From positions 1 through 64,000 of the forward strand of contig PLTZ01000082.1 of the NCBI GenBank assembly GCA_003164715.1: a stretch of 64,000 nucleotides of DNA, in the 5' to 3' direction. The position numbers were made by a program, and so were the translations under genes. Below, in pieces: positions 1 to 11,016 of this stretch (positions are counted from its first letter, which is position 1; each line of letters begins with the position of its first letter). Source of the stretch: Opitutaceae bacterium (GTDB lineage Bacteria; Verrucomicrobiota; Verrucomicrobiia; Opitutales; Opitutaceae). The notes under the pieces are model-generated. The model was not told the origin of the DNA and made no database searches. It saw nothing but the letters and a program-made list of their open reading frames with translations.

Positions 1-1
1 G

Positions 2-24
2 TTCGAATACCCCTCTCTCCGCCA
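2..24 (+). repeat. tRNA-Ser 3'-end-like repeat, copy 1 (att-like core)
   Basis: The first 24 bases read as the end of a tRNA: T-loop TTCGAAT (2-8), five T-stem positions ACCCC (9-13), acceptor strand TCTCTCC (14-20), discriminator G and CCA (22-24). The same segment recurs at 759-781 and 1532-1554. The TCTCTCC-G-CCA end is typical of tRNA-Ser. The base at tRNA position 61 is A where a functional tRNA has C (the invariant G53-C61 pair), so this is more likely a displaced attachment-site copy than the end of a working tRNA. The sequence 5' of it lies outside the window. Confidence 0.6.
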
Positions 25-39
25 TTTTTGGGACTCCCT

Positions 40-321
40 CTAGCCCAGCAACTCGTGAAGATGAGCAGCGAGAAACTCGTAGACTACACTGCGCGGCGCC
101 GCATAGAAGACTTCAATTCGTCTCTCGTTATGGCGAAAAATGATTCGATGCTCGCCAACGCGCAGTCGCGAGAGGCCTTCAAGGCTGCCCTGAAGGGGTT
201 TGGTATCGCCGCGTCCGTCTGCTAAGGCGATTATTGCAGACTTCACCCGCCGGCGGGGCTCCGGGGCAAGCGCCCGATGGTACTCGCGCACCTGGTCCGA
301 AACGGTGACTTTAGTCGACAA
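40..321 (-). CDS. RelE/ParE-family toxin of unit 1
   Basis: A 93-residue protein with the RelE/ParE superfamily pattern. An N-terminal helical half is followed by a beta-sheet core LSRLRVGEHRIIFRH and a C-terminal strand FYAAPRSVVYEFL. Family members are mRNA-cleaving or gyrase-poisoning toxins neutralised by the antitoxin encoded just upstream. The start overlaps the end of the antitoxin gene by 11 bp, as usual in such operons. Its stop codon lies only 15 bases from the tRNA-like core at 2-24, so the gene abuts the repeat. Whether the target is RNA or gyrase cannot be decided by eye. The local sequence is visibly richer in A+T than the housekeeping genes. Confidence 0.8.
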   Translation of the reverse strand: MSTKVTVSDQVREYHRALAPEPRRRVKSAIIALADGRGDTKPLQGSLEGLSRLRVGEHRIIFRHNERRIEVFYAAPRSVVYEFLAAHLHELLG

Positions 322-559
322 GGGAAGATGCAGGACGGAACGCTAGCTTGCCCGAGCGAAGAAGCCTGTATTGGCGTGTAAAATCTGGGTCAGAAAGCAG
401 TTCCATGGTTTCAAGAATTCCGCCTAGGCGGGCCGCAGAAATTACATGAGCAACGGGACGATCATGACGGGTCACGGTAACGAGAATCCCGCCCTCCGCG
501 GCGTCGATGGCCGATGCCGTCTCCCGTTGGAGGTCCTTAATGCTGTATGTATCCTTCAT
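311..559 (-). CDS. Phd/YefM-family antitoxin of unit 1
   Basis: An 82-residue antitoxin. The N-terminus IKDLQRETASAIDAAEGG, followed by VTVTRHDRPVAHVISAARL, is the Phd/YefM DNA-binding fold, in which a short helix is followed by the 'xxxGxPxAVxxs' strand. The C-terminal third (around residues 50-82) would be the flexible toxin-binding tail. It is the first gene of a two-gene operon with the toxin at 40-321 and overlaps it by 11 bp. By analogy with the family it should repress its own promoter. A TTGACA hexamer lies 30-35 bases upstream of the ATG. There is no Shine-Dalgarno sequence. Confidence 0.8.
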   Translation of the reverse strand: MKDTYSIKDLQRETASAIDAAEGGILVTVTRHDRPVAHVISAARLGGILETMELLSDPDFTRQYRLLRSGKLAFRPASSLVD

Positions 560-565
560 AGGGAA

Positions 566-594
566 AAGATGTATTTAAGGGGAAGCCCTGTCAA
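566..594 (-). promoter_or_regulatory. candidate promoter of TA operon 1
   Basis: On the minus strand a perfect -35 hexamer TTGACA (589-594) is followed after 17 bases by CATCTT (566-571), or after 15 bases by TACATC. The ATG of the antitoxin starts at 559, which would give a very short leader. The -35 is strong and the -10 is weak. The assignment is from pattern only. Confidence 0.4.
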
Positions 595-670
595 CTCCGC
601 ACAGTAGCCTAAACCGTGTGCAAGAGAGCTCAGGCGGCCGTCACCCGCGGCGATCCATATTTCTGCAGCA

Positions 671-781
671 AGAAAACGGCCATTCCCCCTCGTGTTAGGC
701 CCTAGCAAAAATGCCCGTTTTCGTTGCCCTTGGCCCGGGAGAGATGCCGGTGGCAGCATTCGAATCCCGCTCTCTCCGCCA
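671..781 (+). repeat. att-like repeat, copy 2, ending in the tRNA-Ser 3' core
   Basis: This 111-base block is similar along its length to 1441-1554. Both begin with a GAAAA-rich segment, share CCCTAGCAAAAA (copy 2: 700-711) and end with the T-loop-to-CCA core (here 759-781). The core contains TTCGAAT, CCCGC, TCTCTCC, G and CCA. The bases 5' of the T-loop (CAGCA) cannot pair with CCCGC, so it is not a complete tRNA. The tRNA identity begins at the T-loop, as expected for an integrase crossover segment. An inverted repeat GAAAACGG / CCGTTTTC brackets its first half. It separates the two TA units. Confidence 0.7.
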
Positions 782-790
782 TTCTCAAGG

Positions 791-1057
791 TCACTGCTGG
801 TTCCTCAGGAAGGCCTGAACCTCACCATGCGTTCCACAAAGATGGAAAACGAGGCCGTCTTTCTCTCGCTGAAAGACTAGCCTCAAATCAAGTCCACATC
901 GGCATTCCATAAATGGCATAATTCGTCGGAGCCCGATGCCTGCGTGAAGATGCGGGTGCCCAAATGCCGTACCAGCGGCTTGCATCGCCAACAATACTTC
1001 TTGTCGGCGAGTTGGAGGGACGCTCCTAAGGAAACGCGGCGTCGCCAATAATTTCAC
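791..1057 (-). CDS. RelE-like toxin of unit 2
   Basis: An 88-residue protein with the layout of RelE-superfamily toxins. A helical N-terminus (RFLRSVPPTRRQEVLLAMQ) is followed by beta strands around GIGLRRIM, ECRCGLDLRLVFQRE and LVFHLCGTHGEVQAFL. Its partner at 1054-1356 is a RelB/DinJ-type antitoxin and the two genes overlap by 4 bp (ATGA), so they are translationally coupled. The stop codon lies 9 bases from the tRNA-like core of copy 2, matching the arrangement in unit 1. Endoribonuclease activity is inferred from the family. No catalytic residue can be assigned with confidence. Confidence 0.7.
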   Translation of the reverse strand: MKLLATPRFLRSVPPTRRQEVLLAMQAAGTAFGHPHLHAGIGLRRIMPFMECRCGLDLRLVFQREKDGLVFHLCGTHGEVQAFLRNQQ

Positions 1058-1356
1058 GGAGCGAGGTCATCCGCAGCGGCAATTTCTCGGAGTTTTCCGG
1101 TTCGGCGAGCCTGCGCAGATTCCGATTTCATGATTGCTCCAGCTTTCACCGTATCGTCGGAGTTCAAACCATACTCGTTCACAAAGTAGGCCGCGTCCGG
1201 CTCCATAACGGCAAACGGGAGGCCGCGACGATTCACAAGCTGGGACAGCGCCATAGAAACGTATGACCCCGCATCGAGGCCGATGCTCTTAAGAACGGCG
1301 TCGCTCTTTTTCTTCAGATTGCGATCTATGCGGGTGCGAATTTGAACGGTGGCCAT
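1054..1356 (-). CDS. RelB/DinJ-family antitoxin of unit 2
   Basis: A 100-residue antitoxin with a ribbon-helix-helix N-terminus. The strand VQIRTRIDRNLKKKSDAVL is followed by GLDAGSYVSMALSQLVNRRGLPF, the classic RelB/DinJ pattern of a basic strand, two helices and the G-L-P-F turn. The remaining ~50 residues would wrap the toxin. It is the first gene of the operon, overlapping the toxin start by 4 bp. Family members bind operators as dimers and autoregulate. A pair of GGCTCA repeats spaced ten bases apart lies just upstream. No ribosome binding site is visible before the ATG at 1356. Confidence 0.8.
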   Translation of the reverse strand: MATVQIRTRIDRNLKKKSDAVLKSIGLDAGSYVSMALSQLVNRRGLPFAVMEPDAAYFVNEYGLNSDDTVKAGAIMKSESAQARRTGKLREIAAADDLAP

Positions 1357-1366
1357 GCCTCAAAAA

Positions 1367-1391
1367 GGCTCAATATGGCTCAGATAGTCAA
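1367..1391 (-). promoter_or_regulatory. candidate operator/promoter of TA operon 2
   Basis: GGCTCA occurs at 1367-1372 and again at 1377-1382 (plus-strand reading), exactly one helical turn apart. A TTGACT hexamer lies on the minus strand at 1386-1391. The pair sits 10-35 bases upstream of the antitoxin ATG, where a ribbon-helix-helix antitoxin would be expected to bind. There is no convincing -10. Confidence 0.35.
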
Positions 1392-1440
1392 GCGTCGTAC
1401 CCCGTCAGACATTGGATTTCAGCGATATCTGTTTCCGAGG

Positions 1441-1554
1441 CGAAAATTCCGTCGTTTCCCCTCATGCTAGTCCCTAGCAAAAAGATCGATTTTAGGTGCT
1501 TCCTAGCCCGGCAAAATCTCTGGTGCAGGCATTCGAATCCCCTTCTCTCCGCCA
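1441..1554 (+). repeat. att-like repeat, copy 3, ending in the tRNA-Ser 3' core
   Basis: This block matches 671-781 along its full length. It shares CCCTAGCAAAAA (from 1472) and GCATTCGAATCCC, and ends with TCTCTCC-G-CCA. The core occupies 1532-1554 (TTCGAAT, CCCCT, TCTCTCC, G, CCA). The 5' flank does not pair to form a T-stem, so this is also not a whole tRNA. It lies between TA unit 2 and a gene fragment whose stop codon begins four bases after the CCA. Confidence 0.7.
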
Positions 1555-1557
1555 CTT

Positions 1558-1719
1558 TCATGCCGCCGTGAGCGGATGGACGGAAGCTTTGACCTTTTCC
1601 CCGACGGTGGTGATCGGCTCACGCAGGTCGCAGGCGAGCTGCACCTGAAGCCAATATCCTGGGTTGGGCTCGGCAACTGAGGTGTTAACGGCGCCATACT
1701 TGCGGCGCTCGGTCCGTGG
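1558..1719 (-). pseudogene. truncated coding remnant, possibly a HigA-like antitoxin
   Basis: An open minus-strand frame without a start reads ...ERRKYGAVNTSVAEPNPGYW, then LQVQLACDLREP, and ends in a TGA at 1558-1560. The stretch PGYWLQVQLACDLRE resembles the C-terminal 'PEFWLNLQ.AYDLR' signature of HigA-type antitoxins. An upstream in-frame stop at 1720-1722 shows the 5' part is missing. The position (stop four bases past the tRNA core) repeats the geometry of units 1 and 2, so it looks like the decayed last member of the array. The HigA match is weak. It could be a remnant of another family. Confidence 0.4.
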
Positions 1720-1769
1720 TCAGGAGCTCACGGCTTGGCACAGGCCTCAAATACTGCGTGGCTTAGGTC

Positions 1770-2813
1770 GTGACGGACCTCTCGGAGCACAGCTTGGCCA
1801 CGCTTGCTGCGGAGCTTTCGGCTGGCGGACTGAGGCCCTCCCATTCGGGTCCGTTGCTGCGGTCCTACTATAGGATGGACGCCGGGTCGGGCTCCAACGA
1901 CCGGCGTTTTCCGGCCGAACTGGAGCGCCTGCTGAGGGAATCGATAGAGCGGCGCCTAGCCTCCCTTGCGGCGCGGCATGTGGCGTCGGATGGGACCGCC
2001 AAGTTCCTGATCCGCATGTCCGATGGCCGGACGGTTGAATCGGTGCTCATGCCCGGCCACCGAACGGACCGGGCGGCAGGGTGCCTTTCGTCGCAGGTCG
2101 GGTGCGCGATGGGCTGCGACTTCTGCGCTACGGCAAAGGCCGGATTCGAGCGGAATCTCACATCCGGGGAGATCGTGGACCAGTTTCTGACGCTCCGCCG
2201 GGAGGCCAGGGCCGGCGGCCGCAGGCTCCAGACCGTCGTCTTCATGGGCATGGGCGAACCGATGCTAAATCTCGGAAATGTGCGCCTGGCGATCGAGCGG
2301 ATGGCCTCGAACGACATGGGGGGTCTCGGCTGCGGGCGGATCACCGTCTCGACCGTGGGCATTGTGCCCGGGATCGAGGAACTCGCCGCCTCCGGGCTGA
2401 ACGTCAACCTCGCGGTCTCGCTTCACGCGCCCGACGACCGGACGCGGGCCCGTTTGCTGCCGACCGGGCGGCGGTTTGGCGTCGTGGAGATTCTTGGGGC
2501 GGCCGATCGTTACCAAGCCGCCACGGGCAGGCCTGTGTCCATCCAGTACTGTCTGCTGAAGGGGGTGAACGACTCCGTGGAGCAGGCCGACGATTTGGCC
2601 AGACTCCTGAAGGGGCGCCGGATGCACGTGAATCTGCTGCGGTACAATCCGATCGGCCCTGGCCTGAGCGGCGAGGTCTACGAGGCCGTCTCGGGTGCCG
2701 CGGCGGACTGCTTCCTCTCCCGCCTGCGCGACAACGGGGTCGTGGCGCACCTCAGGCAATCGCGCGGGCCGGATATTGACGCGGCGTGCGGGCAGTTGAG
2801 GCAGCGGGCGTGA
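1770..2813 (+). CDS. rlmN: dual-specificity 23S rRNA A2503 / tRNA A37 methyltransferase RlmN
   Basis: A radical-SAM methylase of 347 residues, close to the family length, that adds C2-methyl to A2503 of 23S rRNA. The radical-SAM cluster motif CAMGCDFC supplies Cys112, Cys116 and Cys119. Cys105 (AGCLSSQVGC) and Cys340 in RGPDIDAACGQL correspond to the conserved cysteines, the latter being the one that is methylated in the mechanism. The SAM-binding GMGEP motif (VVFMGMGEP) is present. The start is a GTG, and no in-frame ATG near the N-terminus fits better. It lies alone immediately right of the att-like array and converges on the histidine kinase gene with a 12-base gap. Confidence 0.9.
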   Translation: MTDLSEHSLATLAAELSAGGLRPSHSGPLLRSYYRMDAGSGSNDRRFPAELERLLRESIERRLASLAARHVASDGTAKFLIRMSDGRTVESVLMPGHRTDRAAGCLSSQVGCAMGCDFCATAKAGFERNLTSGEIVDQFLTLRREARAGGRRLQTVVFMGMGEPMLNLGNVRLAIERMASNDMGGLGCGRITVSTVGIVPGIEELAASGLNVNLAVSLHAPDDRTRARLLPTGRRFGVVEILGAADRYQAATGRPVSIQYCLLKGVNDSVEQADDLARLLKGRRMHVNLLRYNPIGPGLSGEVYEAVSGAAADCFLSRLRDNGVVAHLRQSRGPDIDAACGQLRQRA

Positions 2814-2825
2814 CGTTGGGGGCGA

Positions 2826-5800
2826 TCAGCTGCGCTGCGAAAGCACGCGCTCGATGACGGCGGCCAGGTGGGCGACGTCGTAGGGTTTTGCTACGACGGC
2901 GCAAAACCCGAAGTTGCGGAAGTTGGCGAGAACGGGGTCCTTTGAGTAGCCGCTCGAGACGATCGCGCGCACGTGCGGATCAAACTTTCGCAGTTCAGCG
3001 ACCGTCTTGATGCCCCCCATGCCGCCTGGAACGGTCAGATCCATAATGACGAGGTCGAAGGGGCGCCCGGCGGCGAGGGCCTCCTGGTAGGCGCGGATGC
3101 ATTCGGTCCCGTCCGCGACCGTGGCCGCTTCGTAGTTGAGGCGCCGCAGCACCCGCGCGCCCACATCGCGGATGGTCTCCTCGTCGTCCATGATCAGTAT
3201 CCGCCTGCTCTGCGTGGGCGACGCGGGCGGCGCGTCGACAGGGGAGGACGGGGCGGTGTCCGCAGCGGGGATCCACATCGCCAAGGAGGTGCCTTGGCCG
3301 GGCTTCGACTCGATCTCGATGATTCCGCCGTGCTTCTTCAAGATGGAGTAGGCCGTGGCCAGTCCAAATTGGTCTTTGCCGAGCATCGCTGCCGAGTAGG
3401 GGTCGAAAATCCCCGAAAGCTGGTCCGCGGGTATCCCGATGCCATGGTCCGCGACCGTCAGGCGCACATAGCGGCCCGGCGCCAGCGGGTGGGCCGAGTC
3501 CGGGCCGACCGTCTCGTTGGAGGCGACGAGCTCGATCAGCCCGCCGTCCGGCATGGCTGCATTCGCATTGGCAACCAGATTCTGCACCGCCCTCCCGAGC
3601 TGCGCCGGATCCGCATTCACGGGCCATAGGTCTGCTTCGGGGCGGAACTGGGCCAGCGATCTTGCGCCGCTCAGCGCGAGGGCGATCGATGCGTCCACCA
3701 CGGCCGGCAGCGACAGCGGGCCTCTAACGGGATCGCCGCCCTTCGCGAAGGTCAGCAGCTGCTGGGTGAGTCCCTGGGCGCGCTTCGCCCCGGCTTCCGC
3801 CTCGCGCAGGCAGTCGCCGACCCTGGCCATGGCCTCGTCATCCAGTTTTGCGAGCGTGATGTTACCCATGATGACCGTCAGGAGGTTGTTGAAGTCGTGG
3901 GCAATGCCCCCCGCCATCATTCCCAGGGAGTTCAGGCGCTCGGCGCGCTCGAGCTCTGCCTCTAGGCGGGCCTTGTCCTCCAGATTCGCGCGGATCTCCG
4001 CCGTTTGCTTGCGCACACGCCGGCGGAGCGAGACCACCCAGAAGACGACGCCAAAGGCGCAGGCGCCGCAGACGACGGCCGCCATGAGCGCCTTTTCGAT
4101 CGTCCACCACGGTGGCGACTTGAGGAGGACGATGTCGGAAGGGGCGCGCAGGAGGAGCTCCGCTCCGGTCACCTTTCGGTGCTCGTCGTAGCGCAGCCGG
4201 TAGATGCCGGTCGCGGAGACGGTGCTGTCCTTGTGCCACGCACTGGGCAGGCCCGGGCTTCTGGAATGGTCGAGGCGGGCGACGACGCTCTCGGCTCCGA
4301 TTCGCATCGTCAGGAGGTACTCGTCGCCAAGGTCCGTCACCTCGGTGACAAGTCCGTCGGCGTGCACCAGGGTGTAGTCATTCTGGGAGCTCCGCGGGAT
4401 CGGTGAGGACAGGCGCCGGGCGTGAGGCTCCGGCTCGTGGCCGGTGCGCCGGATGACGGTCTCCCGGAGAAGGGCGCGGGTGCCGTCCCAGCCGGGGATC
4501 CCGACGACGTCGACGAGGTCTCCCGGGACGACCTCTGTGCGGTCCCTGCTGAGCGCCAGGAGGTGCGCCGTCTCGCTCTGGAGCACGAGGAACCGGCCCG
4601 GAGCCTGATAGGTCACCACCCCGGCCGTGTGAAGCCGATGCGACGTGCCGTGCGTCGACTCAAATCGCCCCAGGTTTTCAAGCGGGGTGAAGGGGGTCGC
4701 AAACAGGTCGGCCGCCGGCGCCTCGTCGACGTCGATGAGCCCGTCGATAGGCACCCAGAGCTGGACCCCGGTGGACCGGTGGAACTCGTTGGCAATCACA
4801 TCGCAAACGCCACGGAGCCGCACGAACGCCCCGATCTTGTCGTCCACCTTGACCGAGGACGGCAGCAGCGCGCTGAATTCGCCGGTGGCCGTCGTGAGGT
4901 CGAGCTGCGTCCACGGGGCGGCGCGCTCTTCGGCTCGGACGTATCCCTCCATCTCCACCCACTGGTTCTCGCTGGCTCCGGTGAGCGCCTGCTCAAGCGA
5001 GATTCGCGGCGGTTCGGGCTGGCTCATTGAGGCTCCGACGGAACCGTCGCGGAAAATCACCTCCGGGGCGTATTCGCCCATCGCGGTCACGCCGGTCACG
5101 ACCGCGGAGACTCCCGGCGGCATTCCGGCGAACTCCACCTTGGGGCCGGCGGTCACGCGAATCCCGCCGCTGCGGTCCTGAAGAAAGAAGAACCGGGCCC
5201 CATCCGCTCCCCATGTGACCACTCCCGAAAGTTTGACCGGCTGCTGGGCGGCGGCCTTTTCGGGGGAGAGCTCCAGGATCTGGGCCGCCAGGTTCAACAC
5301 GGCGTTATTGGCGGGCGCCGCGGTGCTCAGTGCGGCGCCGCTGTGCGGTCGCCACAGCACCTGGTCCAGGTGCGGATCGCTGGCGTCAGCGGAACGGTAT
5401 CCGATCGCGTCTATGTCGGCCCCGACGTGCAGGCCGCGCTCCTGCGGAGTCCGGAGCTCCAGCAGTCCCGATTCGTCCCGGATGGTCGCGGACTGGCCGG
5501 GCGAGAATGAGTCGATTCGGCCCGCGACGTGCAGCTTGGCGCCCGGGAGGGCCTGCGGCACGTCCCCAATCCGTATTGTCGGCAGATCGAACTGAGGATC
5601 CTTGTCGAGCCATCCGCGTACGGACAGGTTGTCCGTCCCCTGCACCAGTAATTCGAGGCCGACAAGGCGCTTGTTGATGTCGACGCGGGGAAGGTAGAGG
5701 CCGACCGCGTGGACGATCGCGCCCGTAAGAAGCGGGGCCTGGCCCGACTCGTTGAGCCACAGGAGCGTGTCGATGCGGTGCCCCTCGGAGATGAGGGAGA

Positions 5801-6332
5801 GGCGCTGATGCTTTGTGTCGACCTGGTCCTGCCAATCCACAAGCCCGTCCAACTCGATCAGGCGGGCGTTGAGCGCGGCAAGGTCCTCGAGCCTGCCACG
5901 GGCCGAGAGTATCGCGCTGGAGCTGGGCTCGGCGAGCACGGTGATCTCCAGGTTCTCGGCCTGGAATCCGTTTGTGGGCACGACCTCGCCGGAGAGCAGG
6001 ACTCTCTGGCCTGGTTTGAACCCAAACCTTCGGTCCGCCGGCGGAACCATGAAGAAGGTGTCCGTGCCGTCCCAGCCGTAGAACATGTGCCACAGGGGGT
6101 CGTAATAGTTCACAATGGCCTCGAAACGGAATCGGTACCGCTTCTCGCGGGCGGCTCCCTCAATGCGGTAGAAGTCCGCCGAGTGGGTCAGCAGGGGCAG
6201 CTCGCGGCCGTCCGGGGCGGGGGCCTGGGCCATCGCTGCGATACCTCCCCAAAGCCCGCAGACCAGCAATCCGAGGAGCGCCCTATTGCAGCGGCAGGCA
6301 CGCCCCATTGCAACGCCGGGGTGATTCATCAT
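2826..6332 (-). CDS. hybrid sensor histidine kinase/response regulator with long extracytoplasmic region
   Basis: A 1168-residue protein. Signal-like N-terminus (around residues 10-35, ending AMAQA). A long extracytoplasmic part to about residue 735 contains several beta-rich segments of OB-fold character (for example VEMEGYVRAEE, VRLRGVCDVIANEF, GDLVDVVGIPGW). One membrane helix (KALMAAVVCGACAFGVVFWVV) leads into a coiled coil. The HisKA domain has GGIAHDFNNLL with the phosphoacceptor His812. The HATPase carries NLVANANAAMPDGG and DHGIGIP. A fused C-terminal receiver has LIMDDEE and LVIMDL, with Asp1098 the likely phosphosite. No cognate output gene lies beside it. The ligand is unknown. Such large beta-rich sensor kinases are frequent in Opitutaceae (family knowledge). 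Confidence 0.88.
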   Translation of the reverse strand: MMNHPGVAMGRACRCNRALLGLLVCGLWGGIAAMAQAPAPDGRELPLLTHSADFYRIEGAAREKRYRFRFEAIVNYYDPLWHMFYGWDGTDTFFMVPPADRRFGFKPGQRVLLSGEVVPTNGFQAENLEITVLAEPSSSAILSARGRLEDLAALNARLIELDGLVDWQDQVDTKHQRLSLISEGHRIDTLLWLNESGQAPLLTGAIVHAVGLYLPRVDINKRLVGLELLVQGTDNLSVRGWLDKDPQFDLPTIRIGDVPQALPGAKLHVAGRIDSFSPGQSATIRDESGLLELRTPQERGLHVGADIDAIGYRSADASDPHLDQVLWRPHSGAALSTAAPANNAVLNLAAQILELSPEKAAAQQPVKLSGVVTWGADGARFFFLQDRSGGIRVTAGPKVEFAGMPPGVSAVVTGVTAMGEYAPEVIFRDGSVGASMSQPEPPRISLEQALTGASENQWVEMEGYVRAEERAAPWTQLDLTTATGEFSALLPSSVKVDDKIGAFVRLRGVCDVIANEFHRSTGVQLWVPIDGLIDVDEAPAADLFATPFTPLENLGRFESTHGTSHRLHTAGVVTYQAPGRFLVLQSETAHLLALSRDRTEVVPGDLVDVVGIPGWDGTRALLRETVIRRTGHEPEPHARRLSSPIPRSSQNDYTLVHADGLVTEVTDLGDEYLLTMRIGAESVVARLDHSRSPGLPSAWHKDSTVSATGIYRLRYDEHRKVTGAELLLRAPSDIVLLKSPPWWTIEKALMAAVVCGACAFGVVFWVVSLRRRVRKQTAEIRANLEDKARLEAELERAERLNSLGMMAGGIAHDFNNLLTVIMGNITLAKLDDEAMARVGDCLREAEAGAKRAQGLTQQLLTFAKGGDPVRGPLSLPAVVDASIALALSGARSLAQFRPEADLWPVNADPAQLGRAVQNLVANANAAMPDGGLIELVASNETVGPDSAHPLAPGRYVRLTVADHGIGIPADQLSGIFDPYSAAMLGKDQFGLATAYSILKKHGGIIEIESKPGQGTSLAMWIPAADTAPSSPVDAPPASPTQSRRILIMDDEETIRDVGARVLRRLNYEAATVADGTECIRAYQEALAAGRPFDLVIMDLTVPGGMGGIKTVAELRKFDPHVRAIVSSGYSKDPVLANFRNFGFCAVVAKPYDVAHLAAVIERVLSQRS

Positions 6333-6588
6333 CTTTTCAGGGGTGAGGCTGTCATCATCACCCTGTGTTCACATCGGCACATTACAATGATACGTTAGCT
6401 GTCCGTGGCGGAAAGTCACGCGCTGGAGCGATAAGCGGAGGCGCGGAGCCCATTAAGGCGAGGGCTCGGGCGGCGGGGCGCGCGGCGGTGGATCGCCCCG
6501 TGGTTCGTTGGCCCTTGCGGGCGCCGCGCCGGTCCCTCACCGTGGGGGGCGAACGCGGGGATCCTCCCGATGTCCACCAACACGTGCC

Positions 6589-7707
6589 GTGAGTGACCCG
6601 GTCATAATGACGCTCGACGCCGGCGGGACGAGCTTTCGCTTTTCCGCGCTCAGCGGGAGCCGGGCGGTGACGCCGGTCGTCACGATGCCCTCGCATGGCG
6701 ACGACCTGGGCCTCTGCCTCGCCAATATCGTGAAGGGCTTTGAGGAGATCCGGGAGGCCTGCCCGGCCAGGCCCGCGGCGATCAGCTTCGCCTTTCCCGC
6801 GCCCGCGGACTACCCGTGCGGCATCATAGGCGACCTTTACAATCTGCCCGGCTTTAGGGGCGGCGTCGCCCTCGGCCCGATGCTGCAGGAGAAATTCCAG
6901 GTTCCCGTCTTCATCAACAATGACGGGGACCTCTTCGCCTACGGCGAGGCGAGCTGCGGATTCCTGCCGTATGTGAACGGCCTCCTCGAGGCGGCGGGCA
7001 GCCCGAAGCGCTACCGAAACCTGCTTGGCGTGACGCTGGGAACCGGATTTGGCGGGGGGATCGTCCGCAACGGCGACCTATTCCTCGGTGACAATTCGAT
7101 GGCCGGGGAGATCTGGCAGCTCCGCAACAAGCTGGATCCGGGCGTCAGTGTCGAGGAGGGGGCGAGCATCCGGGCGGTGCGTCGCGTCTATGCGGAGGAG
7201 GCGGGGATCGCGATGGCGCAGGCTCCCGACCCGCGTGTGATCGCGCAGATCGCGACGGGGGACGCCCCGGGCCACCGGGCGGCGGCGCTGGAGGCGTACC
7301 GGCGCATGGGCGAGGTCGTCGGGGACGCCCTCGCGACCGCGCTTGCGCTGGTCGACGGCCTCGTTGTGGTCGGGGGCGGGCTGTCCAACGCCCACCGGCT
7401 CTTCCTGCCGGCGGTCGTGCGGGAGTTGAACGGCACCTATGCGCCGTCGGAGAGGACCGGGCGCAGGAGGCTTGAGACGGAGGTATTCAACCTCGAGGAC
7501 GCGGACGAGCTTGCGCGGTTTGTGAGCGGGAGCCCCTGCCAGGTCACGGTGCCGCTGAGCGGCGCCACGGTGCGCTACGACCGCCTGTCCCGGCTTGGCG
7601 TGGGCGTCACGCGGCTGGGAACGAGCCAGGCCATCGCGCTCGGCGCGTATGCCTTCGCCGTGAGGGCCATGTCCCAGGGCGGCCATTGCGTCGGACCGGC
7701 CCCTTAG
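6589..7707 (+). CDS. ROK-family sugar kinase
   Basis: A 372-residue ROK protein. The ATP-binding phosphate-1 motif is LDAGGTSFRFSAL near the N-terminus, followed by FINNDGDLFAYGEA and GVTLGTGFGGGIV, and late in the protein VDGLVVVGGGLSNAHRLF. ROK kinases phosphorylate glucose, N-acetylglucosamine, mannose or fructose at C6. Specificity is not readable here. The zinc-binding CxCGxxGCxE signature is absent: the region after NSMAGEIW has no cysteines. GTG 6589 is preferred (ATG 6607 possible). A further-upstream TTG/ATG would add arginine-rich sequence unlike the family. Its 3' neighbour on the other strand is an FHS-type permease, so kinase and importer may act on the same sugar. Confidence 0.8.
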   Translation: MSDPVIMTLDAGGTSFRFSALSGSRAVTPVVTMPSHGDDLGLCLANIVKGFEEIREACPARPAAISFAFPAPADYPCGIIGDLYNLPGFRGGVALGPMLQEKFQVPVFINNDGDLFAYGEASCGFLPYVNGLLEAAGSPKRYRNLLGVTLGTGFGGGIVRNGDLFLGDNSMAGEIWQLRNKLDPGVSVEEGASIRAVRRVYAEEAGIAMAQAPDPRVIAQIATGDAPGHRAAALEAYRRMGEVVGDALATALALVDGLVVVGGGLSNAHRLFLPAVVRELNGTYAPSERTGRRRLETEVFNLEDADELARFVSGSPCQVTVPLSGATVRYDRLSRLGVGVTRLGTSQAIALGAYAFAVRAMSQGGHCVGPAP

Positions 7708-7741
7708 TTCCTCGGATCCGCGCCCCCATTCCGCTCCGCGG

Positions 7742-9160
7742 TCACGCCGCCTCGGGCAGGCGCCGGTTCCCGAACGTGTGCCCCTTCCAGCCGTAGAAGG
7801 CGACGTAGGCGTAGGCCACCAGCGGCACGATGTAGGAGAGCTGCAGGCCGGCGACGTCGGCGATGTGCCCCTGCAGGGGCGGCAGCAGCGCGCCGCCAAG
7901 GATGGCCATGACCAGGAGCGAGGAGACCTGGCTCTTGTAGACCCCCATGCCTTCGAGCGCCAGGGAGAAGATGTTCGGCCAACCGATGGACGTGAAGAGG
8001 CCGACCCCCACGACGCACCACATCGCCAGCCGTCCCCCGAAGACGATGGCGACCACGAGAAGAAGCATGATCGTCGCCGAGAAGATCACGAGCGTGCGCC
8101 CGGCGAGCGCCTTCCCGAACTGGAATAGGAGCCAGCAGACGGCAAGGAACGGAAGGTAGTTCCTGACAATCGCCCAGCCGCGAAGCGCGGCCAGGATGCC
8201 GAAGGCGACGATGGGGATGGCGGCAAGCAGGAGCTGCTTGTTGGCCTTCCTCATCTCGCTCAGCTCGACGGCGCCCATGAACCGGCCGATCAGCATGCCG
8301 CCCCAGAAGAGCGAGACGTACTTGCTCGCCTCGACCGGGTCGAGGCCGGCGACGGACTTCTGCCCGAGGAAATTGATGATGGAGCTGCCGATCGAGACCT
8401 CGCCGCCGACGTACATAAAGATCGCGAGGACGCCGAGGACGACGTGCGGGTGTTTCAGCGCGCCCACGCCCCGCTCGATCTTTCCCTCGCCGGCGATGTC
8501 CGGGAGGTGGGTGAAGAGGAAGACGCCGGCGAGGACCAGGAAGACGACGCAGAAGGCGATGTAGGGCACCTTAACGGACTCCGCCCCGTGGGCGCCGGTC
8601 TTCGCGAAATACTGGAAGATCAGATAGCCGCCGATCAGGGGCCCGATCGTCGTCCCCACCGAGTTGAACGCCTGAGCCAGGTTCAGGCGGCTCGAGGCCG
8701 TGCGCTCGGGGCCGAGGATCGTCACGTAGGGGTTCGCGGCGATCTGCAGCATGGCGAACCCGAGGCCCACGACGAAGAGCGCGACCAGGAACAGGGTGTA
8801 GGAGAGCGCGTCCGCTGCGGGCCAGAAGAGGGCGCTGCCGGCGGCGGAGATCAGCAGCCCGATCACCACGCCGTTCTTGTAGCCGATCCGGGCGATCGGA
8901 TCGCCTGCCACCGCGGAGATCAGGTAATAGAGGAGCGCGCCGATGAAATAGGCGCCGAAAAAGGCGAACTGCACGAGCATCGCCTGAAAGTAGTTCAGCG
9001 TGAAGGCCTCCTTGAAGCGGGGGATCAGGATGTCGTTGAAGACGGTCATGAAGCCCCACAAGAAGAACAGGACCGTCATCACGGTGAAGGGGCCGCGATA
9101 GGTCCGCTCGGGGGAGGGCTGCGTCGACGCTTGTTCGGCTGATGCGCTGGGGTGTTGCAC
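7742..9160 (-). CDS. FHS-family (FucP/GluP/NagP-like) sugar:proton symporter
   Basis: A 472-residue integral membrane protein with about twelve hydrophobic segments. The signature GFMTVFNDILIPRFKEAF in the first helix pair is characteristic of the fucose-galactose-hexose symporter branch of the MFS. Later NPYVTILGPERTASSRLNL is the conserved 'NPY.t.lg.....r.nl.q.fn..g' block. It starts at a GTG (9160). It faces the ROK kinase gene tail-to-tail, a pairing typical of hexose or N-acetylhexosamine uptake. The substrate is not determinable from sequence. Divergent from the AmpG-like permease at 9292. Confidence 0.88.
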   Translation of the reverse strand: MQHPSASAEQASTQPSPERTYRGPFTVMTVLFFLWGFMTVFNDILIPRFKEAFTLNYFQAMLVQFAFFGAYFIGALLYYLISAVAGDPIARIGYKNGVVIGLLISAAGSALFWPAADALSYTLFLVALFVVGLGFAMLQIAANPYVTILGPERTASSRLNLAQAFNSVGTTIGPLIGGYLIFQYFAKTGAHGAESVKVPYIAFCVVFLVLAGVFLFTHLPDIAGEGKIERGVGALKHPHVVLGVLAIFMYVGGEVSIGSSIINFLGQKSVAGLDPVEASKYVSLFWGGMLIGRFMGAVELSEMRKANKQLLLAAIPIVAFGILAALRGWAIVRNYLPFLAVCWLLFQFGKALAGRTLVIFSATIMLLLVVAIVFGGRLAMWCVVGVGLFTSIGWPNIFSLALEGMGVYKSQVSSLLVMAILGGALLPPLQGHIADVAGLQLSYIVPLVAYAYVAFYGWKGHTFGNRRLPEAA

Positions 9161-9172
9161 GGTGTCTGCCTA

Positions 9173-9189
9173 TTGAAACGGATTTCCAA
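9173..9189. promoter_or_regulatory. candidate interrupted-palindrome operator upstream of the FHS permease
   Basis: TTGAAACGGATTTCCAA has mirror half-sites TTGnAA and TTnCAA around a seven-base centre. It sits 13-29 bases upstream of the permease GTG and within the divergent intergenic region. The shape suits a dimeric repressor such as a LacI-family protein. No second copy was found in the window. Confidence 0.3.
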
Positions 9190-9291
9190 TTACGAGGAGC
9201 AACTTGGCGGGCCGCGGGGCGCGGCGGCGCCGCCCCGGGAATCTCGCGCGTTTCCCGGCTTCGCCTTGTCTTTTGACTCGGCGTGGGTGTC

Positions 9292-11016
9292 ATGACAGCG
9301 CCAAGGAATCGGTCGCCCCAACCCCTGATGTCCTCAAAAACCCACTCCGCGCTTCGCTCGTTCCTCTGGGTGCCTTCGCTTTATCTGGCGATGGGCATCC
9401 CCTACAACGTCGTGAACGGAACGGCGGTGCGGATGTACAAGTCGCTCGGCTACGCCGACAGCCAGATCACGGTTGCGGTGGGCAGCATCGGCATCGCGTG
9501 GTCGCTGAAGCCACTCTGGGCGGCCTTCCTTGACATGTACCGCACCAAGAAGTTCTTCGTGCTGTCGATGGAGCTGCTGATCTCGCTGCTCCTGCTGGGA
9601 GTCGCCATGAGCCTGCCGGCGGCCGGGTTCTTCCAGATCAGCATCGCGATCCTCTGGATCGCGGCGTTCGCCTCCTCGAGCCAGGACATCTGCGCCGATG
9701 GCATCTACCTGACCGCGCTCGACAAGCCGACGCAGGCGCGGCTGGCGGGCACCCAGAGCATGTTCTGGATCCTCGGCAAGGTGCTCGCGGCGGGCATCCT
9801 GATCTCGGTCCTCGACCGGATGCGCGCGGCCGAGGGCTGGTCCGCGCAGCACATGTGGCAGGTGGTGATGGCCACGTGCGCGGTCGGGATGGCGGTGCTC
9901 GCGGTTTACCACCTCTTCTTCCTGCCGCCGGGCAGCATCACGGACAGGCCGCAGAGCGTCCGCCAGGTCGTCGGGGACTTTGTGGGCACCGCCACGACGT
10001 TTTTCCACAAGCGGGCGTTCTGGGGCATGATCGCGTTCGTGTTCCTCTACAGGCTGGGCGAGGGCCTCATCCTCCAGGAGGGCCAGCTCTTCCTGCAGAG
10101 CGCCCAGGGCAGGGGGGGGCTCGGCCTGACCGCCGGAGAGGTGAGCAACATCGAGGCGGTCTACGGCACGGTGACCGGGATCATCGGCGGCCTGCTCGGG
10201 GGCTGGTTCGCCGGCCGCATAGGGCTCAGCCGCTCCCTCTGGATCCTCGGGCTCTTCCTCAACATCCCGCACTTCACGTACATCTACTTGAGCCACTTCG
10301 CCGCGGCCGGCCACGGGCTCAGCTACGGCACCATCGTGACGATGGTGAGCATCGAGAAGTTCGGGTACGGCTTCGGCATGGTCGGCAACATGATCTACAT
10401 GATGCAGCAGATCGCGCCCGGCCGCTGCACGATGACCCACTATGCGTTCGCCACGGCGCTGATGAACCTCGTCCTCGTGCCGACGGCGATGGTCTCGGGG
10501 CCGCTTGCCGAATGGCTGGGCTTCTCGACGTTCTTCCTTGTGGTGATGTTCGCGTCCGTTCCCTCCGTGCTCGCCGCGTGGAGGGCTCCGTTCCCGCTGC
10601 CGGACGACGAGGGACAGGGCATCAGCAGCGAGGGCATGGTCATGGTCACGGTCGACGACCCGACCCGGCTGAGCGCGGCGGAGCGGGCGGTGCAGGCCCT
10701 GGCGGGCCGCGCCTCGATCTATGCGATGCTCAGCATCCTCACGATCCTGATCCTCGACGCGAAGATCTTGGGTTCGCTCCAGGGCCAGTCAGCCGGCACC
10801 GGCAAGGTCCAGTTCGCGCTGCTCCTCGGGGTCGTCGTCATCAAGGGCTACTTTGCCTGGAAGACCTTCAGCCTGGCCTCCCAGGCCCGCGCCGCCGCGG
10901 ACTTAGCCGCGGAGAGGAACTACCTCAGCAACGCGCACGGCGCAAAGGTGGCCACGCTGATCTGCGCAGCCGTGACGCTGTGCATCCTGGCGTTCGGCTA
11001 TCGGATGGCGTTCTGA
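9292..11016 (+). CDS. AmpG/PAT-family MFS permease
   Basis: About 574 residues with twelve to fourteen hydrophobic segments. The N-terminal block LWVPSLYLAMGIPYNVVNG followed by IGIAWSLKPLWAAFLDMY matches the AmpG/peptide-acetyl-CoA transporter branch ('slKflWAPllD'). AmpG imports anhydro-muropeptides during cell-wall recycling. Members in this phylum could carry other solutes, so the substrate is left open. It is longer than E. coli AmpG, with a loop around VDDPTRLSAAERAVQ before the last helices. Start choices are ATG 9292 or ATG 9328; the latter begins nearer the conserved core. Convergent with the small membrane protein at 11033. Confidence 0.75.
   Translation: MTAPRNRSPQPLMSSKTHSALRSFLWVPSLYLAMGIPYNVVNGTAVRMYKSLGYADSQITVAVGSIGIAWSLKPLWAAFLDMYRTKKFFVLSMELLISLLLLGVAMSLPAAGFFQISIAILWIAAFASSSQDICADGIYLTALDKPTQARLAGTQSMFWILGKVLAAGILISVLDRMRAAEGWSAQHMWQVVMATCAVGMAVLAVYHLFFLPPGSITDRPQSVRQVVGDFVGTATTFFHKRAFWGMIAFVFLYRLGEGLILQEGQLFLQSAQGRGGLGLTAGEVSNIEAVYGTVTGIIGGLLGGWFAGRIGLSRSLWILGLFLNIPHFTYIYLSHFAAAGHGLSYGTIVTMVSIEKFGYGFGMVGNMIYMMQQIAPGRCTMTHYAFATALMNLVLVPTAMVSGPLAEWLGFSTFFLVVMFASVPSVLAAWRAPFPLPDDEGQGISSEGMVMVTVDDPTRLSAAERAVQALAGRASIYAMLSILTILILDAKILGSLQGQSAGTGKVQFALLLGVVVIKGYFAWKTFSLASQARAAADLAAERNYLSNAHGAKVATLICAAVTLCILAFGYRMAF

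What the first reader, a model, noticed from the sequence alone, without database searches (positions are those of the whole stretch)
1..1719. Tandem TA cassettes delimited by copies of a tRNA-Ser 3' end
Seen: three copies of the T-loop-to-CCA segment at 2-24, 759-781 and 1532-1554, all on the plus strand. The intervals are 757 and 773 bases. Each interval carries exactly one toxin-antitoxin operon, always on the minus strand, with the toxin stop 9-15 bases after the core and about 90-110 bases of further repeat sequence before the next core (671-781 resembles 1441-1554). No integrase is present. Known: tyrosine-recombinase islands use tRNA 3' ends as att sites. Inference: these are minimal single-TA mobile units, moved in trans and stacked at one tRNA-Ser, in effect an integron-like cassette array whose recombination site is a tRNA end. 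That arrangement is not a standard annotated element class.
Basis: partly seen in the sequence, partly recalled or inferred. Interest (0 to 1): 0.75.

Follow-up and report, generated by a model that had tools for sequence, protein, structure and literature searches.

The report
Stacked single toxin-antitoxin units at tRNA-Ser
In a genus of peatland bacteria, tiny DNA units that each carry little more than one toxin-antitoxin gene pair are stacked behind the serine tRNA gene, each ending in a copy of the tRNA's tail and the same 110-base attachment site but with no enzyme of their own to move them, which shows how small a tRNA-targeted mobile unit can get.

Summary
Three copies of a tRNA-Ser 3' end (2-24, 759-781, 1532-1554) delimit two intact toxin-antitoxin (TA) units and a truncated third (3' end of a HigA gene, about 1557-1690). 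The window is the start of a contig, so the tRNA itself is missing. Same-genus genomes supply it: intact tRNA-Ser(GCT) is directly followed by the same units in other orders, with the same site of about 110 bases (11 copies in 6 of 13 genomes; none in 239 other genomes of the family). Conservation is confined to -85..+25 around the core. Some species have the tRNA site empty. One TA unit is 98-99% identical between two species whose core genes are only 66-77% identical, so it moved horizontally. TA genes are under purifying selection (dN/dS about 0.1). No unit has an integrase. Integrase islands use the same tRNA in relatives but with different arms. True integrons exist in the genus but are unrelated to this site. 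Best reading: minimal integrase-less integrative units, inserted by a tRNA-Ser-specific recombinase supplied in trans. Such stacking is known (Dehalococcoides ssrA islands, CIMEs); units of one TA operon plus one att site are the new variant. The recombinase is not identified.

The parts
2..24 (+). core 1: tRNA-Ser(GCT) 3' end, one substitution; cut off by the contig start
40..321 (-). toxin 1, RelE/ParE-like, 93 aa (TTG start); homologs 78-80% aa in G004 and G006
   Evidence: RelE PDB E 0.003; ParE Pfam E 0.013, below cut-off
311..559 (-). antitoxin 1, PhdYefM family, 82 aa
   Evidence: E 7e-7; dN/dS about 0.07
682..786 (+). ATT copy W1: about 80-base arm plus core 2 (759-781)
759..781 (+). 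core 2: tRNA-Ser 3' end
791..1057 (-). toxin 2, probable RelE-superfamily, 88 aa (GTG start)
   Evidence: position in operon with RelB; sequence and fold matches inconclusive; dN/dS about 0.11
1054..1356 (-). antitoxin 2, RelB family, 100 aa; same unit is first behind tRNA-Ser in G008
1453..1559 (+). ATT copy W2: arm plus core 3 (1532-1554)
1532..1554 (+). core 3: tRNA-Ser 3' end
1557..1690 (-). truncated third unit: C-terminal about 40 codons of a HigA antitoxin (full HigBA unit in G004, G005, G010)
1770..2813 (+). RlmN-like radical SAM gene; right flank of the array, also next to an att core in G002

Best explanation
The region is a stack of small integrative units at the 3' end of tRNA-Ser(GCT). 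Each unit is one TA operon plus one attachment site (ATT): an arm of about 80 bases followed by the last 23 bases of the tRNA. A tyrosine recombinase supplied in trans, by another element in the cell or earlier in the lineage, recombines the unit's core with the tRNA 3' end. The insertion restores the tRNA and leaves a displaced 3' end behind, so the next unit can enter the same site and push older ones away from the tRNA. Distal units then decay, as the HigA remnant shows. The TA operons keep their own promoter side next to ATT, read toward the tRNA, stay under selection, and probably protect the stack from deletion. Shown: anatomy, site conservation, tRNA identity in relatives, changed order, empty sites, horizontal spread of one unit, purifying selection. 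Inferred: the recombinase, circular intermediates, mobility of single units, and the stabilising role.
For: Same cores directly behind intact tRNA-Ser(GCT) in G006, G008 and G010, and further downstream in G002, G004 and G005. Same TA units in other positions: RelBE first behind the tRNA in G008 but second in the window; PhdYefM/RelE first in G006, after HigBA in G004; HigBA first in G010 and a remnant in third place here. ATT: 11 copies in 6 of 13 genus genomes, 0 of 239 others in the family; pairwise identity 0.57-0.60 in the arm and 0.87 in the core, against 0.28 outside -85..+25. Empty sites: G003 and G012 have the same gene 85-103 bases behind the tRNA; G003 shares its upstream flank with occupied G006, and G011/G012 share theirs with occupied G010. 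Horizontal spread: PhdYefM/RelE in G004 and G006 has dS 0.03-0.07, against 0.81 (xer) and 1.43 (rlmN). dN/dS about 0.07-0.11. Constant geometry: antitoxin start to ATT 91-134 bases; all eight cargo types read toward the tRNA. The same tRNA is used by integrase islands in G002 and G005. Yardstick: at tRNA-Ser(GGA) an integrase island (G005) has a comparable conserved arm left of its core, and one integrase-less unit of about 0.75 kb in G008 shares part of it.
Against: No recombinase with this ATT arm was found in any of the 13 genomes; the home genome has only Xer-type, RIT-type and integron integrases by Pfam and no relative of the tRNA-Ser island integrase. ATT arms do not group by cargo, and PhdYefM/RelE carries ATT here but an anticodon-type att in G004 and G006, so unit and site are not permanently linked. 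Other units diverge about as much as core genes (RelBE G000-G008 dS 0.5-0.7), so most insertions may be old. Excision was not tested. The tRNA of this genome is not assembled.
Confidence: 0.6

Rival explanations
1. The units are not mobile by themselves. They are what remains of larger integrase-bearing islands that inserted one after another at tRNA-Ser and then lost everything except the TA operon, which resists deletion, and the right-hand att site (CIMEs by decay and accretion).
For: Full integrase islands sit at the same tRNA in G002 and G005. In another genus a RelBE homolog lies in a 2.3-kb unit delimited by tRNA-Cys 3' ends, flanked by a 188-base repeat that reads like an integrase gene 3' end. 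The literature describes decay to CIMEs as the usual route (PMC5704250).
Against: The same minimal unit with the same spacing recurs in several species and array positions. One unit spread recently at minimal size between G004 and G006. No intermediate or full-size island with the ATT arm and an integrase was found.
Confidence: 0.27
2. Units are exchanged by homologous recombination between tRNA ends, ATT repeats and flanks after DNA uptake, without any site-specific recombinase.
For: ATT arms do not track cargo; the same TA operon is found with two att types; no integrase for this site in the home genome.
Against: Identity between ATT copies is low (arms 51-81%) and the exact shared stretch is about 20 bases, short for homologous exchange; conservation has sharp edges; units enter sites that are empty in relatives, always in one orientation.
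Confidence: 0.09
3. The array is an integron or an integrase-less attC cluster whose sites happen to include tRNA sequence.
For: The genus has integron integrases (E 1e-71 to 1e-77) and cassette arrays with TA genes.
Against: No IntI near the array; real attC repeats in G008 and G000 are about 90-101 bases and unlike ATT; ATT lacks paired R boxes and a long stem; it lies on the promoter side of the operon.
Confidence: 0.02

Closest known systems
Dehalococcoides ssrA genomic islands (PMC3146451)
   Same: Tandem islands delimited by 20-base repeats of an RNA-gene 3' end, conserved motif next to the repeat, insertion in the T-loop, 15 islands without integration module, suggested to be CIMEs
   Different: tmRNA not tRNA-Ser; serine recombinase in half of the islands; cargo kilobases of dehalogenase genes, not one TA operon
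CIMEs and tandem accretion (PMC5704250)
   Same: Elements with attL and attR but no integration or transfer genes, stacked at one target
   Different: CIMEs are defined as decayed ICEs or IMEs; here no parent element with this att arm is known, and units are under 1 kb with one operon
Additive flexible islands with recurring tRNA-Lys ends in Methylophilaceae (PMC10872708) and at a tRNA in Alteromonas (PMC4119200)
   Same: Repeats of the last 20 bases of a tRNA separate inserts of 330 bases to 42 kb; cassettes are added at one tRNA
   Different: Cargo is mostly unknown or metabolic genes; no shared 110-base att arm or uniform TA cargo described in the text read
Integron gene cassettes with TA operons
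   Same: Tandem small units, one operon each, one orientation, shared recombination site
   Different: No IntI, no attC; site is a tRNA end and lies upstream of the operon
Tycheposons
   Same: tRNA-flanked elements
   Different: 4-200 kb with tyrosine recombinase as summarised in PMC10872708

Membership tests
tRNA-targeted integrative element | Insert bounded by the tRNA 3' end and a direct repeat of it, tRNA left intact | tested here: met
   G006, G008, G010: intact tRNA-Ser(GCT) then unit then repeat; the tRNA itself is not assembled in the window's genome
tRNA-targeted integrative element | Empty sites in relatives | tested here: met
   G003, G011, G012 against G006, G010
tRNA-targeted integrative element | Own integrase next to the att site | tested here: not met
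   No unit encodes one
CIME | attL and attR present, no integration or transfer genes | tested here: met
CIME | Derived by decay from an ICE or IME with the same att sites | tested here: inconclusive
   No such parent found; integrase islands at the same tRNA have other arms
CIME | Mobilised in cis with an adjacent element | not testable with these tools
   needs excision and transfer assays
integron cassette array | IntI gene adjacent or controlling | tested here: not met
   IntI lies on other contigs with its own attC array
integron cassette array | attC site with paired R boxes and long imperfect stem, behind the gene | tested here: not met
   ATT is on the promoter side
type II toxin-antitoxin operon | Antitoxin of a known family | tested here: met
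   PhdYefM (just under Pfam's cut-off, 29.4 against 29.8 bits) and RelB
type II toxin-antitoxin operon | Toxin of a known family | tested here: inconclusive
   Toxin 1 weak RelE/ParE matches, toxin 2 none above threshold; models low confidence
tycheposon | Large element (4-200 kb) with tyrosine recombinase | tested here: not met
   units 757 and 773 bases, no recombinase; size range as given in PMC10872708

The most novel reading that the evidence does not exclude
A dedicated helper-dependent cassette system: one recombinase, encoded elsewhere and possibly not recognised by Pfam, moves sub-kilobase TA units as single circles in and out of tRNA-Ser(GCT) in this genus, with the tRNA in the role that attI has in integrons and the 110-base ATT in the role of attC.
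Probability: 0.15. Interest if true: 0.8.

Novelty: new variant of a known kind. Interest (0 to 1): 0.55.

Why it matters
It gives a natural lower limit for a site-specifically integrating unit: one addiction operon plus one att site. It also links two known facts, that TA operons stabilise islands and that islands stack at tRNA genes, in units where the TA operon is all the cargo. If single units move, TA operons would travel as parasites of other elements' integrases, which would help explain why TA operons are so often found alone in chromosomes. The arrays leave an ordered record at one tRNA, so the insertion order can be read and tested.

Tried and rejected
Integron or attC cluster: rejected. 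ATT as a promoter, terminator or known RNA: no consensus promoter or terminator in 1-1800 above chance, no credible Rfam match. ATT as a single-strand hairpin site: no compensatory pairs. Autonomous partner with the ATT arm: none in viral contigs, phages, plasmids, 252 family genomes or the species-level genome collection. Linking ATT copies to cargo by a tree: no supported branch. Toxin identity by fold: AlphaFold models of pLDDT 70-74 gave no usable match. A first dN/dS comparison of xer and one rlmN set picked antisense frames and was discarded, then repeated correctly. Joining contig C12's right end (a degraded tRNA-Ser 5' part) to C30's left end is possible but only an 8-base overlap supports it; left open.

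Full report
What was reported and what is there. The finding describes three copies of a tRNA-Ser 3' end with one TA operon between each pair. All coordinates hold. The antitoxins belong to the PhdYefM and RelB families; the toxins are only weakly recognisable, and structure prediction did not settle them. The window begins at base 1 of a 125,580-base contig of a 92-contig assembly, so whatever lies left of core 1 is not assembled there. Core 1 has one substitution (TTCGAATACCCC) against the tRNA of relatives, so it may be another orphan core.

The tRNA. No tRNA lies in the window. In the same genus the 23 bases are the end of an intact tRNA-Ser(GCT) in G002, G003, G005, G006, G008 and G010, where this tRNA is 98-100% identical.

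The site. Eleven copies of the repeat were found in six of 13 genus genomes, and none in 239 other genomes of the family. Anchored at the core, mean pairwise identity is 0.28 outside, 0.57-0.60 from -80 to -1 and 0.87 in the core. This is a discrete site of about 110 bases, called ATT here. It contains a conserved near-palindrome TGCTAG-SCC-CTAGCA and a CCGGGAGA block complementary to the tRNA end, as expected for protein-binding arms, though without compensatory changes. Its size and place match the arm left of the core of a true integrase island at tRNA-Ser(GGA) in G005, which an integrase-less unit of 745 bases in G008 shares in part.

The arrays. Reading from the tRNA: G008, RelBE - ATT - acyltransferase - ATT. 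G010, HigBA - ATT - PemK. G006, PhdYefM/RelE - anticodon-type att. G004, AbiE-like genes, HigBA - ATT - PhdYefM/RelE - anticodon-type att - Phd-HicB antitoxin - ATT. G005, integrase island - 8-kb island - ATT - HigB unit - core-like - VapBC-like - core-like. G002, integrase island - rlmN - HicA/Phd-HicB - ATT. Window: core - PhdYefM/RelE - ATT - RelBE - ATT - HigA remnant - rlmN. Contig C12 of the same genome: RelBE - ATT - shorter HigA remnant. Eight different cargo types all read toward the tRNA (two-sided sign probability 0.008 if orientation were free; my calculation). Antitoxin (or cargo) start to ATT is 91-134 bases.

Empty sites and movement. G003 and G012 have the same 402-aa gene 85-103 bases behind the tRNA. 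G003 shares its upstream flank with occupied G006, and G011/G012 share theirs with occupied G010. The PhdYefM/RelE pair of G004 and G006 differs by dS 0.03-0.07, while xer and rlmN differ by 0.81 and 1.43, so this unit moved between lineages. RelBE and HigBA differ about as much as core genes, so those insertions are older or vertically inherited. Between-species comparisons of the TA genes give dN/dS of about 0.04-0.16.

Recombinase. By Pfam the home genome has two Xer genes, a trio of adjacent tyrosine recombinases and an integron integrase, and no relative of the 401-aa integrase found at tRNA-Ser in G002 and G005. That family scores below Pfam's cut-off, so a divergent recombinase could be missed. 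The integron is separate: its attC repeats are 90-101 bases and unlike ATT.

Mechanism. Site-specific insertion at the tRNA 3' end with a recombinase in trans explains core, arm, stacking, order changes, empty sites and decay away from the tRNA. Decay of larger islands to a TA remnant is the main rival: a RelBE homolog in another genus sits in a 2.3-kb tRNA-Cys-delimited unit between copies of what reads like an integrase 3' end. The two views can both be true, decay first and spread of the minimal unit later. Against a strict unit, arms do not follow cargo and one TA operon occurs with two att types.

Known context. Tandem RNA-gene-end islands, about half of them without integrase, are described in Dehalococcoides (PMC3146451); CIMEs and accretion in PMC5704250; inserts of 330 bases to 42 kb behind tRNA-Lys ends in PMC10872708; cassettes at a tRNA in Alteromonas (PMC4119200). 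The arrangement is therefore a variant of a known kind. New, as far as searched, are units of one TA operon with one shared att arm, in fixed orientation, across a genus. The paper library holds open-licence papers only.

Noticed in passing
L177 (G000:C51) 1339-2364 and 4624-5131; L179 (G008:C101) 1400-8052: Chromosomal integron: integron integrase (TIGR02249, E 1e-73 to 1e-76) with attC-like repeats; in G008 seven repeats of 101 bases and a Phd/ParE-like TA cassette.
   Followed up: partly
L178 (G000:C58:8000-18268) 6974-10164: Three adjacent tyrosine recombinase genes (316-418 aa), resembling a recombinase-in-trio element, next to a VapBC-like pair.
   Followed up: no
L091 (G004:C56), positions 8830-8870, 8714-8803 and 4509-4569 of the contig: The native tRNA-Ser(GCT) is split at the anticodon into a 5' half and a 3' half 4.3 kb apart; directly behind the 5' half sits a different complete tRNA-Ser(GCT), as if the insert brought its own replacement tRNA.
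   Followed up: partly
G002:C11:388611-388653 and G005:C5:33829-33864: Orphan 5' halves of tRNA-Ser(GCT) 2.3 and 3.7 kb upstream of the intact gene, pointing to insertion on the other side too.
   Followed up: partly
G000, 33 tRNAs with known contig length: 11 of 33 tRNAs lie within 100 bases of a contig end (0.16 expected), 8 of them with the 3' end facing the end; tRNA 3' ends seem to break this assembly.
   Followed up: partly
L240 (G008:C45:36000-47576): A second tandem array of small units (745 and 777 bases) behind tRNA-Ser(GGA), no integrase; one holds a 181-aa gene.
   Followed up: partly
L291 (G201:C24): RelBE homolog in a 2.3-kb unit delimited by tRNA-Cys 3' ends, flanked by a 188-base repeat (86%) that reads like an integrase C-terminus.
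   Followed up: partly
L087, L091, L083: Antitoxin with a Phd-like N-terminus and HicB-like C-terminus (Pfam in L091; homologs in L087 and L083), paired with HicA in G002 but lying next to a PemK-like toxin in G010.
   Followed up: no
L005 (G000:C24) 1240-1262; L008 (G000:C42) 1501-1523: Further orphan tRNA 3' ends in the home genome, one behind an AbiEii-like gene.
   Followed up: partly
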